Origin: a virus
Strand: one strand, 5' to 3'
Length of the DNA stretch: 62,737 bases
IMG/VR virus record: IMGVR_UViG_3300046458_000082
Span: 1-62,737 of that record
Shown here: one piece after another, positions 38,475 through 42,299 of the stretch
Layout of the letters: each line of letters opens with the position of its first letter
Numbering within the stretch: the stretch's first letter is position 1
The notes under the pieces: model-generated
Databases searched by the model: none
The model's input: the letters and a program-made list of their open reading frames with translations, nothing else
Told to the model about the DNA's origin: nothing
Position numbers and translations under genes: made by a program

Positions 38475-38485
38475 TATTGAGTCCA
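38472..38485 (+). promoter_or_regulatory. cI promoter -10 with leaderless start
   Basis: TAATAT at 38472-38477 lies 7 bp before the cI ATG, and no ribosome site exists. The transcript would begin at or next to the ATG, as for lambda PRM. The -10 overlaps the third operator; the -35 (TGCATG) is poor, fitting an activated promoter. Confidence 0.6.
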
Positions 38486-39141
38486 TGGAAAGACATGAAC
38501 GTATTGCCCGAGCCATACAGCTCAGCGGGAAAAAGAAAGGGGAGATTGCAGCGCTATGCGGTGTTGCAAACTCTGCAGTCACTCAATGGATTACTGGTGA
38601 GAGCAAAAGCCTCCGACCAGAAAATCTTTACGCCCTCGCGGATGCCACTGGCTTCGAAGCTGAGTGGCTTGGCGTTGGTCGAGGTCCGGAGCGAAAGCGC
38701 GGCGTGCCAGGAAATCTGGGTGATGCTGACATGCGAGAGCAGAAATTCCGCTACCCAGTAATTAGCTGGGTTGCCGCCGGCGCATGGTCTGAAGCTGTTG
38801 AACCCTATCCGACCGGTTTCTCGGACAACTATGAGTTTTCGGAGTACGACTCCAAAGGCCCCGCATTCTGGCTAACAGTCAAAGGCGACTCAATGACGGC
38901 ACCCGCCGGCCAGAGCATCACGGAAGGCACCCTAATTCTCGTCGACACCGAAGCTGAGGTCGCGCCGGGTAAGCTGGTCGTAGCTAAGCTGCCAGATAGC
39001 AACGAAGCCACATTCAAGAAGCTCGTCAGCGACGGCGGGAGGTTGTTCCTCAAGCCGTTGAACCCTGGCTATCCGATTGAACCGTTCGACGAGAATTGTC
39101 GGATCGTTGGCATAGTGGTGCGTGCGCTGCAGAAGTTCTGA
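38485..39141 (+). CDS. cI: CI-type repressor, S24 self-cleaving
   Basis: 218 aa. HTH at residues about 14-60 (GKKKGEIAALCGVANSAVTQ). Cleavage site Ala98-Gly99 in WVAAGAW, catalytic Ser136 in GDSM, and Lys178 in EATFKKL, as in LexA/CI. RecA-stimulated cleavage would induce the prophage on DNA damage. It is divergent from cro. The start directly follows its -10, so the mRNA is probably leaderless. Confidence 0.96.
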   Translation: MERHERIARAIQLSGKKKGEIAALCGVANSAVTQWITGESKSLRPENLYALADATGFEAEWLGVGRGPERKRGVPGNLGDADMREQKFRYPVISWVAAGAWSEAVEPYPTGFSDNYEFSEYDSKGPAFWLTVKGDSMTAPAGQSITEGTLILVDTEAEVAPGKLVVAKLPDSNEATFKKLVSDGGRLFLKPLNPGYPIEPFDENCRIVGIVVRALQKF

Positions 39142-39236: not shown

Positions 39237-39488
39237 ATGACAGATCTGATGCAGCAGCTCGATGGCCCAAGAACCGCGCAGCAAGAGCTGTTCTACGACC
39301 TGGAGGACGCTATGGCGATCATCGGCTGGTCAGTAACCGAATTGACTGCAATTGCCGGGTGTGCGCGGTCACCTGATGAAGCCGTTACCTTGATGAAGAT
39401 GGGTGCGCTGCTAGGTGCTCAGCAGGAAAAGCTTCGCGGCTATGCGAATGAGGTGAAGGCGGGAAGAATTGCGCGGGAAAAGGCTTAG
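39237..39488 (+). CDS. Hypothetical protein downstream of cI
   Basis: 83 aa with AGGAAA upstream. Mostly helical and acidic (QQELFYDLEDAMAIIGWSVT). No family recognised. It sits between cI and the defence-type cassette, a place often used for lysogenic-conversion genes. Confidence 0.65.
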   Translation: MTDLMQQLDGPRTAQQELFYDLEDAMAIIGWSVTELTAIAGCARSPDEAVTLMKMGALLGAQQEKLRGYANEVKAGRIAREKA

Positions 39489-39574: not shown

Positions 39575-41326
39575 ATGAGTAATAAAAAACGCACCGACAA
39601 TGATTTCTCATACGTGCAAAAAATTAATATTACTCATTTTCGCGGACTTAAAAACCTAGCCATCCCTCTCGGCAAACGAATAACATTACTTTGCGGTAAA
39701 AACGGCACGTCAAAATCATCAATACTAGGAATAGCCGCTCAAGTTTTTAGCTTTGAAAAAGACTACGTTAAAGACGAGCAACTGTCATTCCAAACGCTGA
39801 CTGGCGCTAAATTTGAATCTCGAGTTTCTGAGCATTTTCGCCTTTCTAAGAAATTTGACAGGCCAGACTCAATGGAGACCTCAGTATCAATTTACGACGG
39901 ATACACATCTGCCGAGGCCGAGTTAACTCTTAAACTATATGATTCCAAAGACAGGAATAAGCCACGGCCAATCGTTCGGGGAAACACGCTATCCGAAGGT
40001 GAAAACACGAGCAGGAATGCAACGCACCCAGTTATTTATTTAAGTCTTAAGCGACTAACGCCTATATCTCAGCGAGCGAAGTATGCGGAGCATGATATAG
40101 ACTTCCTCGCTGAAAACAGGCGTGAGTTTGTATCGCTGAGCAACAGACTACTCAGCAAAAGATCAGCAACATCTGTAACAGCGACAACTGGCACGATTAA
40201 ATCTGCTGCTGCCCACGGTACAAACTATGACCACGACTCGGTTTCAGCGGGCGAGGATAATGCGGGCCAAATACTACTAGCCATATTTTCTTTCAGAAAG
40301 CTGAAGGCTGAATACCCTGAATACAAGGGCGGCTTATTACTAATCGACGAAGCTGACGCAGGCTTGTTTCCCGCAGCACAACGACAACTAATCCAAATTC
40401 TTACAGAAGAGTGCAAAGATTTAAATATTCAAGTTATTATGACATCCCACTCTCCGACGATGATCGAAGACATTCAAAAGCTCAGCCTCCTCGATAGCGC
40501 CAATTATCAAAATATCTATTTGAGCGATAGCTATGGTCCGATACAGATTTTTGAGAATGTAACTTGGCCACAAATTTATGCGGATCTTCACGTCCAGCCA
40601 ATCCTAATTGATACCGATTTATTACCTCAAATAAATCTATACTTTGAAGACAAAGAAGCGAGTGATTTTTACGCAGCAATTATTACAGACAGGACAATTA
40701 ATAAGATAACTAACCCACTTAAAGATATAGCGCTAGGCTGCTCTGAGTACATCAAACTCGTAAAGCGAAAGATTCCGGAATTTCGTATAAAAAGCCTAAT
40801 CATCCTCGATGGAGATGTGGAAGGCACAAAAGAATTTGATAGCATTCTCAAACTACCTGGCAATCTTCCGCCAGATCAACTTATCTTCGAGTTCCTTTAC
40901 AATCTTGCGCCAGACGACGCATATTGGAAAAACCGTTTAGGTTTCACAAAGCCGGTATTTTTATCTTTGTGCCAGAAGCTTGCCGACACATTAGCAATTG
41001 ATCCTGCTGACGAAAAAATAGATATGGCAAAGCTCGTTTCTGCGCACAGCAAGTCATCCGGCCCAGAGGATCAGCGCTTGCGAAGTCATTTCAAGCTTTT
41101 TGCGAATGACAAAACGTTTCTGAGCATGGTCTCAGGGGGCGCAGCGAATAATCCTTACAGGGCTTGGGCAAAGCATCACCCCGAGCTGTGCGAGGAGTTC
41201 AGAAGTTCGTTAAGGAAAGGGCTCCGTAACGCAATGGTGAATGGCTTCGGCATTGACCCGGCAATGCTTAAGGCTCTCGATGACCCAGAAGACTTGAAAA
41301 AAACCAAATCCAAGGTTTCCGAATAG
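39575..41326 (+). CDS. OLD-like AAA ATPase with TOPRIM-like nuclease part
   Basis: 583 aa from ATG 39575 with GGAAGG upstream. ATPase: Walker A GKNGTSKSS (41-49), ABC-signature-like SAGEDNAGQ (224-232), Walker B LLLIDEAD (254-261), and SHS (291-293). The C-terminal half shows a TOPRIM-like set: FEDKEASDFY (357-366) and LIILDGDVEG (408-417). This is the OLD/GajA-type layout, linked to phage defence. Clearly more AT-rich than neighbours. It sits between cI and the early region, with a Dam-type methylase behind. Substrate and trigger unknown. Confidence 0.82.
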   Translation: MSNKKRTDNDFSYVQKINITHFRGLKNLAIPLGKRITLLCGKNGTSKSSILGIAAQVFSFEKDYVKDEQLSFQTLTGAKFESRVSEHFRLSKKFDRPDSMETSVSIYDGYTSAEAELTLKLYDSKDRNKPRPIVRGNTLSEGENTSRNATHPVIYLSLKRLTPISQRAKYAEHDIDFLAENRREFVSLSNRLLSKRSATSVTATTGTIKSAAAHGTNYDHDSVSAGEDNAGQILLAIFSFRKLKAEYPEYKGGLLLIDEADAGLFPAAQRQLIQILTEECKDLNIQVIMTSHSPTMIEDIQKLSLLDSANYQNIYLSDSYGPIQIFENVTWPQIYADLHVQPILIDTDLLPQINLYFEDKEASDFYAAIITDRTINKITNPLKDIALGCSEYIKLVKRKIPEFRIKSLIILDGDVEGTKEFDSILKLPGNLPPDQLIFEFLYNLAPDDAYWKNRLGFTKPVFLSLCQKLADTLAIDPADEKIDMAKLVSAHSKSSGPEDQRLRSHFKLFANDKTFLSMVSGGAANNPYRAWAKHHPELCEEFRSSLRKGLRNAMVNGFGIDPAMLKALDDPEDLKKTKSKVSE

Positions 41327-41390
41327 GGCTGGCCAAGTATACTGCCGGCCGTTAAACTGAGGTTGCGCACACCTCAAAGGATGAGACCAA

Positions 41391-42269
41391 ATGTACTCCA
41401 ACAAGCTGTATAGCCCCCTACGCTACCCTGGCGGTAAGGCTCGATTCGCGCCTTTCATCGCAGAGGTGATGCGGGCTAATGGCCTGGAGGGCGGACACTA
41501 TCTCGAACCATTTGCCGGCGGGGCCGGCGTTGCCCTTGAGCTTCTGTTCGAGGGACACGCGACGCATATCCATATTAATGATCTCGATCCGGCCGTATTC
41601 GCCTTTTGGTCAGCCGCGACTGCCGATCCGGACGGAATCTTAAAGCTTCTCAGGGACACGCCAATCACTATGGAGCAATGGCATCACTGGCGTTCAGTGA
41701 TGCTTGAACAAGCGCCTGACCTATCCCTTGCGCAGAGGGGCTTTGCAACACTTTTTGTGAACCGCACGAACCGATCAGGCATCCTCAAGGGTGGAGTTAT
41801 CGGGGGGAAGGCACAGACCGGCGCCTACAAACTTGACGCTCGGTTTAGCAAAGAAATGATTGCTGCCAGGCTTGAACGAATCGCGCTGAATGCAGATCGG
41901 ATTTCGGTATATTGCGAGGATGCATTTCTTTTGCTCGGCCGAGCAGCAGAGTTTCTGCCCGACCAATCGCTGATCTACCTTGATCCGCCCTATTACGTTA
42001 AGGGGCGTGGCCTATACCGAAATTTCTATAAGCACGATGACCATCTGCAAATCGCTCAATTACTGCAGTCGCCTGACTTCAAGAGACCATGGGTAGTCTC
42101 GTACGATAGCGCACCAGAAATCTGCGAAATGTACAGCCAGAACGAAGCACTGACTTACGGACTTCACTACACCGCCCAAGCGCGATATGTAGGCGATGAG
42201 GTTATGTTCTTCAAAGAAGGCATTTCTGTACCTGATGCGAAAATTCCTAGAGCCACTGTGGCTGCCTAA
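41391..42269 (+). CDS. D12 class adenine-N6 DNA methyltransferase (Dam type)
   Basis: 292 aa. LRYPGGKARF and PFAGGAG (40-46) form motifs X/I for SAM binding; LDPPYY (197-202) is catalytic motif IV. AAAGGA precedes the ATG. It starts 64 bp after the OLD-like gene and ends at a terminator, so the two form one cassette. It could protect phage or host DNA from the upstream nuclease, or just change methylation. GATC as target is probable by family, not proven. Confidence 0.92.
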   Translation: MYSNKLYSPLRYPGGKARFAPFIAEVMRANGLEGGHYLEPFAGGAGVALELLFEGHATHIHINDLDPAVFAFWSAATADPDGILKLLRDTPITMEQWHHWRSVMLEQAPDLSLAQRGFATLFVNRTNRSGILKGGVIGGKAQTGAYKLDARFSKEMIAARLERIALNADRISVYCEDAFLLLGRAAEFLPDQSLIYLDPPYYVKGRGLYRNFYKHDDHLQIAQLLQSPDFKRPWVVSYDSAPEICEMYSQNEALTYGLHYTAQARYVGDEVMFFKEGISVPDAKIPRATVAA

Positions 42270-42275
42270 CACTAT

Positions 42276-42299
42276 GCCCGGCCCAGCGCCGGGCTTCTT
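42276..42299 (+). terminator. Terminator of the OLD-methylase cassette
   Basis: Stem GCCCGGC / GCCGGGC with CCAGC loop, followed by TTCTT. Closes the plus-strand cassette. Confidence 0.78.

What the first reader, a model, noticed from the sequence alone, without database searches (positions are those of the whole stretch)
39575..42299. OLD-like ATPase/nuclease plus Dam-type methylase cassette beside cI
A 583-aa protein with Walker A/B, a signature-like loop and a TOPRIM-like E...D, DxD set is followed after 64 bp by a D12 adenine methylase and then a terminator. The first gene is AT-rich against its surroundings. It lies in the cI-early gap, which often holds prophage defence genes. OLD-type enzymes act in defence alone (Old, class 1) or with partners (Gabija, PARIS). 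Pairing with an adenine methylase is not one of the standard sets I know. It could be a methylation-sensing exclusion system.
Basis: partly seen in the sequence, partly recalled or inferred. Interest (0 to 1): 0.82.

Follow-up and report, generated by a model that had tools for sequence, protein, structure and literature searches.

The report
Prophage nuclease-plus-methylase defence gene pair
A dormant virus in a bacterial genome carries a conserved pair of genes, an ATP-driven DNA-cutting enzyme of the OLD kind and a DNA-methylating enzyme, that very probably work together to keep out other viruses; the methylating enzyme belongs to a defence system already proven in E. coli, but here it has a different partner.

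Summary
At 39575-41326 lies a 583-aa OLD-like ABC-ATPase with a C-terminal TOPRIM nuclease signature. After 64 bp follows a D12 N6-adenine methylase (41391-42269), then a terminator-like hairpin. The pair is not an accident of this prophage. In ATPase-selected relatives (56 clusters at 90% identity, 55 evaluable) the same methylase family lies within 2 kb in 54, and directly downstream on the same strand in 48. Hosts range from Pseudomonas, enterobacteria and Geobacter to Streptococcus. Only four residues are invariant in the C-terminal domain: the TOPRIM E(D)...DxD. The usual partner PD-Lambda-5_A is absent here. Across 88 methylases the partner is the OLD-like ATPase, PD-Lambda-5_A, or both, with at least 7-8 switches forced by well-supported branches. 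So the OLD-like nuclease fills the slot that PD-Lambda-5_A holds elsewhere. Best reading: a compact restriction-modification-like exclusion cassette; the methylase marks resident DNA and the nuclease attacks what lacks the mark. Function is untested. ABC-ATPase-anchored R-M-like systems were predicted before, so: new variant of a known kind.

The parts
39575..41326 (+). OLD-like ABC-ATPase with C-terminal TOPRIM nuclease domain, 583 aa (phrog_3940 family)
   Evidence: Pfam AAA_15 4e-20; phrog_3940 533 bits; AlphaFold model pLDDT 86.7, best PDB fold matches TsOLD 6P74 (9e-12) and GajA
39695..39718 (+). Walker A GKNGTSKS (residues 41-48)
   Evidence: conserved in full-length relatives with small variations
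40244..40261 (+). ABC signature-like motif SAGEDN (residues 224-229)
   Evidence: S224, G226, D228, N229 invariant in 47 sequences
40334..40351 (+). Walker B LLLIDE (residues 254-259)
   Evidence: I257 D258 E259 invariant
40646..40651 (+). TOPRIM acidic residues E358-D359 after the first TOPRIM strand
   Evidence: with D412 and D414 the only invariant residues of the C-terminal domain over 47 sequences
40808..40816 (+). TOPRIM DxD, D412-G-D414
   Evidence: invariant; follows a predicted strand 408-411
41391..42269 (+). D12-class N6-adenine DNA methyltransferase, 292 aa (PD-Lambda-5_B / phrog_56 family)
   Evidence: MethyltransfD12 1e-17; PADLOC PD-Lambda-5_B 364 bits, E 1e-109; all 41 members of the alignment match it
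41505..41531 (+). AdoMet-binding motif EPFAGGAGV (residues 39-47)
   Evidence: E39, G43, G44, A45 invariant in 41 sequences
41982..41993 (+). catalytic motif DPPY (residues 198-201)
   Evidence: invariant in 41 sequences
42276..42294 (+). terminator-like hairpin closing the cassette
   Evidence: 7 G-C pairs, weak T tail; inside the DNA block shared with related prophages

Best explanation
A two-gene, prophage-borne exclusion cassette that works like a compact restriction-modification system. The D12 methylase puts N6-methyladenine on its recognition site in the host chromosome and the prophage. The OLD-like protein, an ABC-type ATPase carrying a TOPRIM nuclease, engages incoming phage or plasmid DNA and cuts it where the mark is missing, ATP binding or hydrolysis gating the cut. 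The methylase family is shared with the proven defence system PD-lambda-5; the OLD-like ATPase/TOPRIM takes the place that PD-Lambda-5_A holds there. Shown: both genes, their catalytic signatures, conserved pairing, repeated exchange with PD-Lambda-5_A, travel as one cassette. Inferred: defence function, DNA as the target, methylation as the self mark, the division of labour.
For: Pairing in 54 of 55 evaluable clusters, 48 as a same-strand pair with the methylase just downstream, and also in convergent (5) and upstream (1) order, so it is not only one inherited operon. Sequence distances of the two proteins are correlated over 41 pairs (Mantel r 0.71; 0 of 2000 permutations reach it). The methylase is PD-Lambda-5_B, and PD-lambda-5 gave broad phage protection in E. 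coli (PMC9519451), described there as a compacted prophage version of an RM+Abi system. In methylase-selected loci the partner was the ATPase in 12, PD-Lambda-5_A in 23, both in 1, neither in 3 of 39. The PD-Lambda-5_A model matches 20 of 28 records drawn mostly from those without the ATPase, but only 1 of 28 records that carry it. At least 7-8 partner changes are forced by starred branches of the methylase tree. TOPRIM E, D, D and DPPY are invariant. Relatives sit beside repressors or integrases of prophages and in an ICE. Decay is one-sided: broken ATPase with intact methylase in three loci (L082, L085, L108), never the reverse (small numbers).
Against: No phage or nuclease experiment exists for this pair. 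One cluster (c0, Pasteurellaceae-like prophages) keeps an intact ATPase/TOPRIM with no methylase of this family in the viral records searched, so the methylase is not strictly needed; three of its loci carry an unrelated N6/N4 methylase 2-5 kb downstream. In P. aeruginosa PAO1161 an unlinked OLD nuclease needed no methylase for viability (PMC6945700). Phage PhiNP, which carries a relative of the cassette, does not exclude PhiSM from its lysogens (PMC6456863), so protection, if any, is selective. The full-length model's domain arrangement is uncertain (pTM 0.59) and the fold match of the isolated C-terminal domain is weak (E 0.1).
Confidence: 0.5

Rival explanations
1. Guard (RM+Abi-type) system: the OLD-like ATPase/TOPRIM does not read methylation on DNA but is an abortive effector triggered by infection, for instance when a phage protein disables the methylase or restriction, as AriA/AriB of PARIS respond to the DNA mimic Ocr; its target may be tRNA or the host DNA.
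For: The ATPase matches PARIS AriA, PtuA, GajA and HEC-04 models about equally well (~60-69 bits); the authors of PD-lambda-5 call it RM+Abi; AriA reacts to Ocr, an inhibitor of restriction (PMC12839542); six loci hold methylase, PD-Lambda-5_A and the ATPase together, as if the ATPase were added to a methylase system (L015, L070, L080, L104, L107, L135).
Against: In most loci no other restriction partner is present for it to guard (PD-Lambda-5_A in 1 of 28). The TOPRIM is fused as in OLD/Gabija, not separate as in PARIS.
Confidence: 0.25
2. Two unrelated cargo genes: a stand-alone exclusion nuclease (class 1 OLD or HEC-04/IbfA-like) beside a phage methylase that protects the phage's own DNA from host restriction.
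For: ATPase/TOPRIM proteins such as HEC-04 and IbfA defend alone (PMC12111858); the c0 cluster has the nuclease without the methylase; the genes differ in G+C, 43% against 53%.
Against: 54 of 55 clusters keep the pair, across Gram-negative and Gram-positive hosts and in three gene orders; the methylase is rarely without one of its two partners (2 of 88 in the tree set, one of them at a contig end); correlated distances.
Confidence: 0.17
3. Methylation-dependent (type IV-like) cutting: the nuclease attacks methylated DNA, or the methylase tags invading DNA for destruction.
For: PD-lambda-5 was tested in a host lacking the region containing mrr (PMC9519451), which suggests, as my inference, that its methylase creates sites recognised by a methylation-dependent nuclease.
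Against: A constitutive methylase beside such a nuclease would expose the resident chromosome; the choice of host is explained by the host's own Mrr without invoking the partner gene.
Confidence: 0.05
4. A phage replication or packaging function, not defence.
For: The pair is phage-borne in most loci found.
Against: It lies outside the replication and structural modules, next to the repressor or integrase, is patchy (4 of 399 genomes of the genus), and also occurs in an ICE.
Confidence: 0.03

Closest known systems
PD-lambda-5 (Vassallo et al. 2022, PMC9519451)
   Same: Same methylase family (PD-Lambda-5_B, 364 bits); two-gene module; prophage-borne; in relatives its A and B genes are adjacent as here.
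   Different: Partner here is an OLD-like ABC-ATPase/TOPRIM; the PD-Lambda-5_A model finds nothing in this window even at E 10. PD-Lambda-5_A has no Pfam match above cut-off; by eye its N-terminal VVEGNRR motif recalls ParB-like folds.
OLD family nucleases, class 1 (P2 Old, T. scotoductus OLD 6P74)
   Same: N-terminal ABC ATPase, C-terminal TOPRIM with the E...DxD set; P2 old is prophage-borne; TsOLD is the best full-length fold match.
   Different: Class 1 is defined as single genes (PMC10568477); here a methylase is a near-constant neighbour. Sequence identity in the fold alignment is only 14%.
Gabija (GajA-GajB, OLD class 2)
   Same: GajA has the same two-domain plan; second-best full-length fold match.
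   Different: No UvrD-like GajB helicase; 12% identity; methylase instead.
PARIS (AriA-AriB) and retron ATPase-TOPRIM effectors
   Same: ABC ATPase plus TOPRIM nuclease as defence effector; ATPase-Toprim_I-B model matches all 47 sequences.
   Different: No separate AriB; scores far below family level; no retron reverse transcriptase was specifically sought.
HEC-04 / IbfA (single-gene ATPase-TOPRIM, proven anti-phage)
   Same: Best PADLOC hit of the nuclease gene (68 bits); same domain plan.
   Different: Acts as one gene; score far below a true family match.
[quoted passage not shown] 2020, as cited in PMC12839542)
   Same: OLD-type ABC ATPases linked with nucleases in R-M-like operons have been predicted.
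   Different: The 2020 paper is not held here, so whether it lists this very pair could not be checked.

Membership tests
OLD family (ABC-ATPase + TOPRIM) | N-terminal ABC ATPase with Walker A/B, signature and H-loop | tested here: met
OLD family (ABC-ATPase + TOPRIM) | C-terminal TOPRIM with E and DxD | tested here: met
   E358, D359, D412, D414 the only invariant residues of that half; strand-helix order fits; fold search puts XccOLD first but E 0.1; ATPase-Toprim_I-B profile reaches residue 422
OLD class 1 | single gene without a constant partner | tested here: not met
   methylase neighbour in 54 of 55 clusters
OLD class 2 / Gabija | UvrD/PcrA-like GajB next door | tested here: not met
   downstream gene is the methylase, then an 83-aa DUF1654 gene
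PARIS | separate AriA ATPase and AriB TOPRIM (or AriAB fusion) | tested here: not met
   single fused protein; AriAB model 46 bits only
PD-lambda-5 | methylase PD-Lambda-5_B | tested here: met
   364 bits, E 1e-109
PD-lambda-5 | partner PD-Lambda-5_A | tested here: not met
   PDLC04017 finds nothing in the window or four close relatives at E 10
Type II restriction-modification | sequence-specific methylase | tested here: inconclusive
   D12 family and motifs intact; MTase_II model 322 bits; recognition site unknown
Type II restriction-modification | cognate endonuclease cutting unmethylated sites | not testable with these tools
   needs purified protein and methylated / unmethylated DNA
Anti-phage defence system | reduces phage plating when cloned | not testable with these tools
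   no published test of this pair was found

The most novel reading that the evidence does not exclude
A further class of OLD system in which an OLD ATPase/TOPRIM nuclease is the restriction half of a true self/non-self pair: cutting is licensed by absence of its own methylase's mark, and the methylase is a shared chassis onto which different effectors (OLD nuclease or PD-Lambda-5_A) are swapped during evolution.
Probability: 0.35. Interest if true: 0.72.

Novelty: new variant of a known kind. Interest (0 to 1): 0.52.

Why it matters
How OLD nucleases tell self from foreign DNA is an open question for Old and Gabija. A family that nearly always travels with a site-specific methylase gives a direct test: does methylation switch the nuclease off? 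The exchange of partners around one methylase family also links two defence types so far listed apart, and suggests that single-component scans of 'orphan' phage methylases miss two-gene defence cassettes.

Tried and rejected
Filing it as PD-lambda-5: rejected, the A gene is absent. Filing it as Gabija, PARIS, Septu or retron: rejected, scores ~45-69 bits only and partners missing. E. coli DNA search for a near-identical pair gave only short 72% matches, but these led to two diverged pairs, in an ICE and at icd. Broad genome surveys found the ATPase in 4 of 399 genomes of the genus and 2 of 398 of the phylum: rare and patchy. Trying to use c0, the methylase-less cluster, as a natural test (predicting a dead nuclease) failed: its catalytic residues are intact. 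Literature searches found no paper on this pair; the most relevant 2020 classification is not held. The methylase's recognition site could not be predicted.

Full report
WHAT IS THERE. The window is a virus record of 62,737 bases: tail, portal and head genes on the minus strand, a CII-like activator, an S24 repressor at 38485-39141, RecT/RecE-like genes and an integrase. After the repressor and one small ORF (phrog_6388) comes a 583-aa ORF, 39575-41326, and after 64 bp a 292-aa ORF, 41391-42269, then a G+C hairpin. The first has 43% G+C against 57% for the window, among the lowest 0.5% of windows of its size. Related prophages share a DNA block of ~78% identity that begins at the start of the first gene and ends just past the hairpin, while flanks match separately or not at all: the two genes and the hairpin move as one cassette.

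THE NUCLEASE GENE. Pfam sees only the ATPase (AAA_15 4e-20). The nearest named family is phrog_3940, 533 bits, function unknown. PADLOC's best are HEC-04, AriA, PtuA and GajA at 60-69 bits, no true member of any. Over 47 sequences the Walker A, SxGxDN signature, Walker B and H residues are conserved; in the C-terminal half, aligned separately, exactly four residues are invariant: E358, D359, D412 and D414. The predicted structure (pLDDT 86.7; pTM 0.59, so domain packing is uncertain) has the strand-E-helix-strand-helix-strand-DxD order of TOPRIM. Its best solved matches are T. scotoductus OLD (9e-12) and GajA (2e-11) over the full length. The C-terminal domain alone (pLDDT 93.5) has the Xanthomonas OLD C-terminal structures as its top matches and the Burkholderia one close behind, but with E about 0.1-0.5. 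I take TOPRIM as well supported, not proven.

THE METHYLASE GENE. It is a D12 N6-adenine methylase with intact EPFAGGAG and DPPY. PADLOC names it PD-Lambda-5_B with 364 bits, and all 41 aligned members match that model. PD-lambda-5 was found by functional selection in E. [quoted passage not shown] Its other half, PD-Lambda-5_A, is not in this window.

THE PAIR IS REAL. Relatives were fetched by the ATPase, without regard to the methylase. They fall into 56 clusters at 90% identity; one cannot be judged because its contig ends. Of the other 55, 54 have the methylase within 2 kb: 48 same strand and just downstream, four convergent within 700 bp, one convergent at 2 kb with PD-Lambda-5_A between, one upstream. 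Hosts include Pseudomonas, Geobacter, Nitrosomonas, Cupriavidus, Acinetobacter, Citrobacter, E. coli (an ICE, and a prophage at icd), Vibrio and Streptococcus. Distances of the two proteins are correlated (Mantel r 0.71 over 41 pairs, none of 2000 permutations). A caveat: the search profile was built from paired members, so more distant ATPases without a methylase may have been missed. The single exception, eight Pasteurellaceae-like prophage loci (host guessed from gene content), has intact catalytic residues and no such methylase in the viral records searched.

PARTNER EXCHANGE. Starting instead from the methylase, 39 loci showed the ATPase in 12, PD-Lambda-5_A in 23, both in 1, neither in 3 (two of these cut or partial). 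The curated PD-Lambda-5_A model matched 20 of 28 records from the methylase-selected set and 1 of 28 records carrying the ATPase. All three genes sit together in six loci (L015 Vibrio phage ValB1MD-2, L070, L080, L104, L107, L135). On a tree of 88 methylases the ATPase label needs 10 changes (27 in shuffles), at least 8 of them forced by well-supported branches; close relatives differ in partner, for example L095/L114 (ATPase) and L118 (PD-Lambda-5_A). So the methylase is a common chassis with two interchangeable partners, and the OLD-like nuclease fills the place of PD-Lambda-5_A. The tree is a quick one and several long branches are unsure.

HOW IT PROBABLY WORKS. By inference: methylase marks resident DNA; the ATP-gated TOPRIM nuclease attacks DNA without the mark. 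For it speak the pairing, the shared proven system, the intact active sites, and one-sided decay (three loci with a broken nuclease and intact methylase, none the other way; few cases). Against a strict R-M logic speaks the methylase-less cluster. A guard model, in which the nuclease reacts to phage attack on the methylase as PARIS reacts to Ocr, remains open. Two published observations bear on it: an unlinked OLD nuclease of PAO1 needed no methylase for viability (PMC6945700), and Citrobacter phage PhiNP, which carries a relative of the cassette (L014), adsorbs to DH5alpha (recA1) but neither plaques nor lysogenises there, while its lysogens remain open to PhiSM (PMC6456863). The first part recalls the lysogenisation defect that named Old, but nothing links it to this gene yet.

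KNOWN OR NEW. No paper held here describes the pair. The OLD review lists single genes, helicase and retron partners. [quoted passage not shown] that source is not held. I therefore call it a new variant of a known kind.

Noticed in passing
L086-L093 and L097 (about 4833-6680 in L087): Pasteurellaceae-like prophages with the ATPase/TOPRIM frame opening directly after the S24 repressor and no methylase of this family in the record; an unrelated N6/N4 methylase (PF01555) lies 2-5 kb downstream in three of them.
   Followed up: partly
L023:2965-5624 (Psychrobacter plasmid pVan23-1): The nuclease is split into two ORFs: ATPase ending in the TOPRIM glutamate (YFEDDEA) and a 156-aa ORF with a DxD-like IADND, followed by the methylase. 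Either a frameshift or a PARIS-like split TOPRIM.
   Followed up: no
L014 / Citrobacter phage PhiNP: A cultivable K-12-infecting temperate phage carries a 50%-identical relative of the cassette; the methylase ORF after its ATPase is not annotated in the record. The phage is reported unable to plaque on or lysogenise DH5alpha after normal adsorption.
   Followed up: partly
window 39237-39488: 83-aa ORF between repressor and cassette (phrog_6388); relatives lie upstream of the cassette in L011 and L012 and as two diverged tandem copies in L002, but not in L009 or L010.
   Followed up: no
L015:5574-8013, L070:7265-9562: Complete or split PD-lambda-5 systems next to the OLD-like ATPase; three-gene loci that could be tested for additive defence.
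   Followed up: partly
L017-L019, L117-L146: PD-Lambda-5_A has no Pfam match above cut-off although it recurs beside this methylase in dozens of phages; the N-terminal (V)VEGNRR motif suggests a ParB-like fold, unverified.
   Followed up: no
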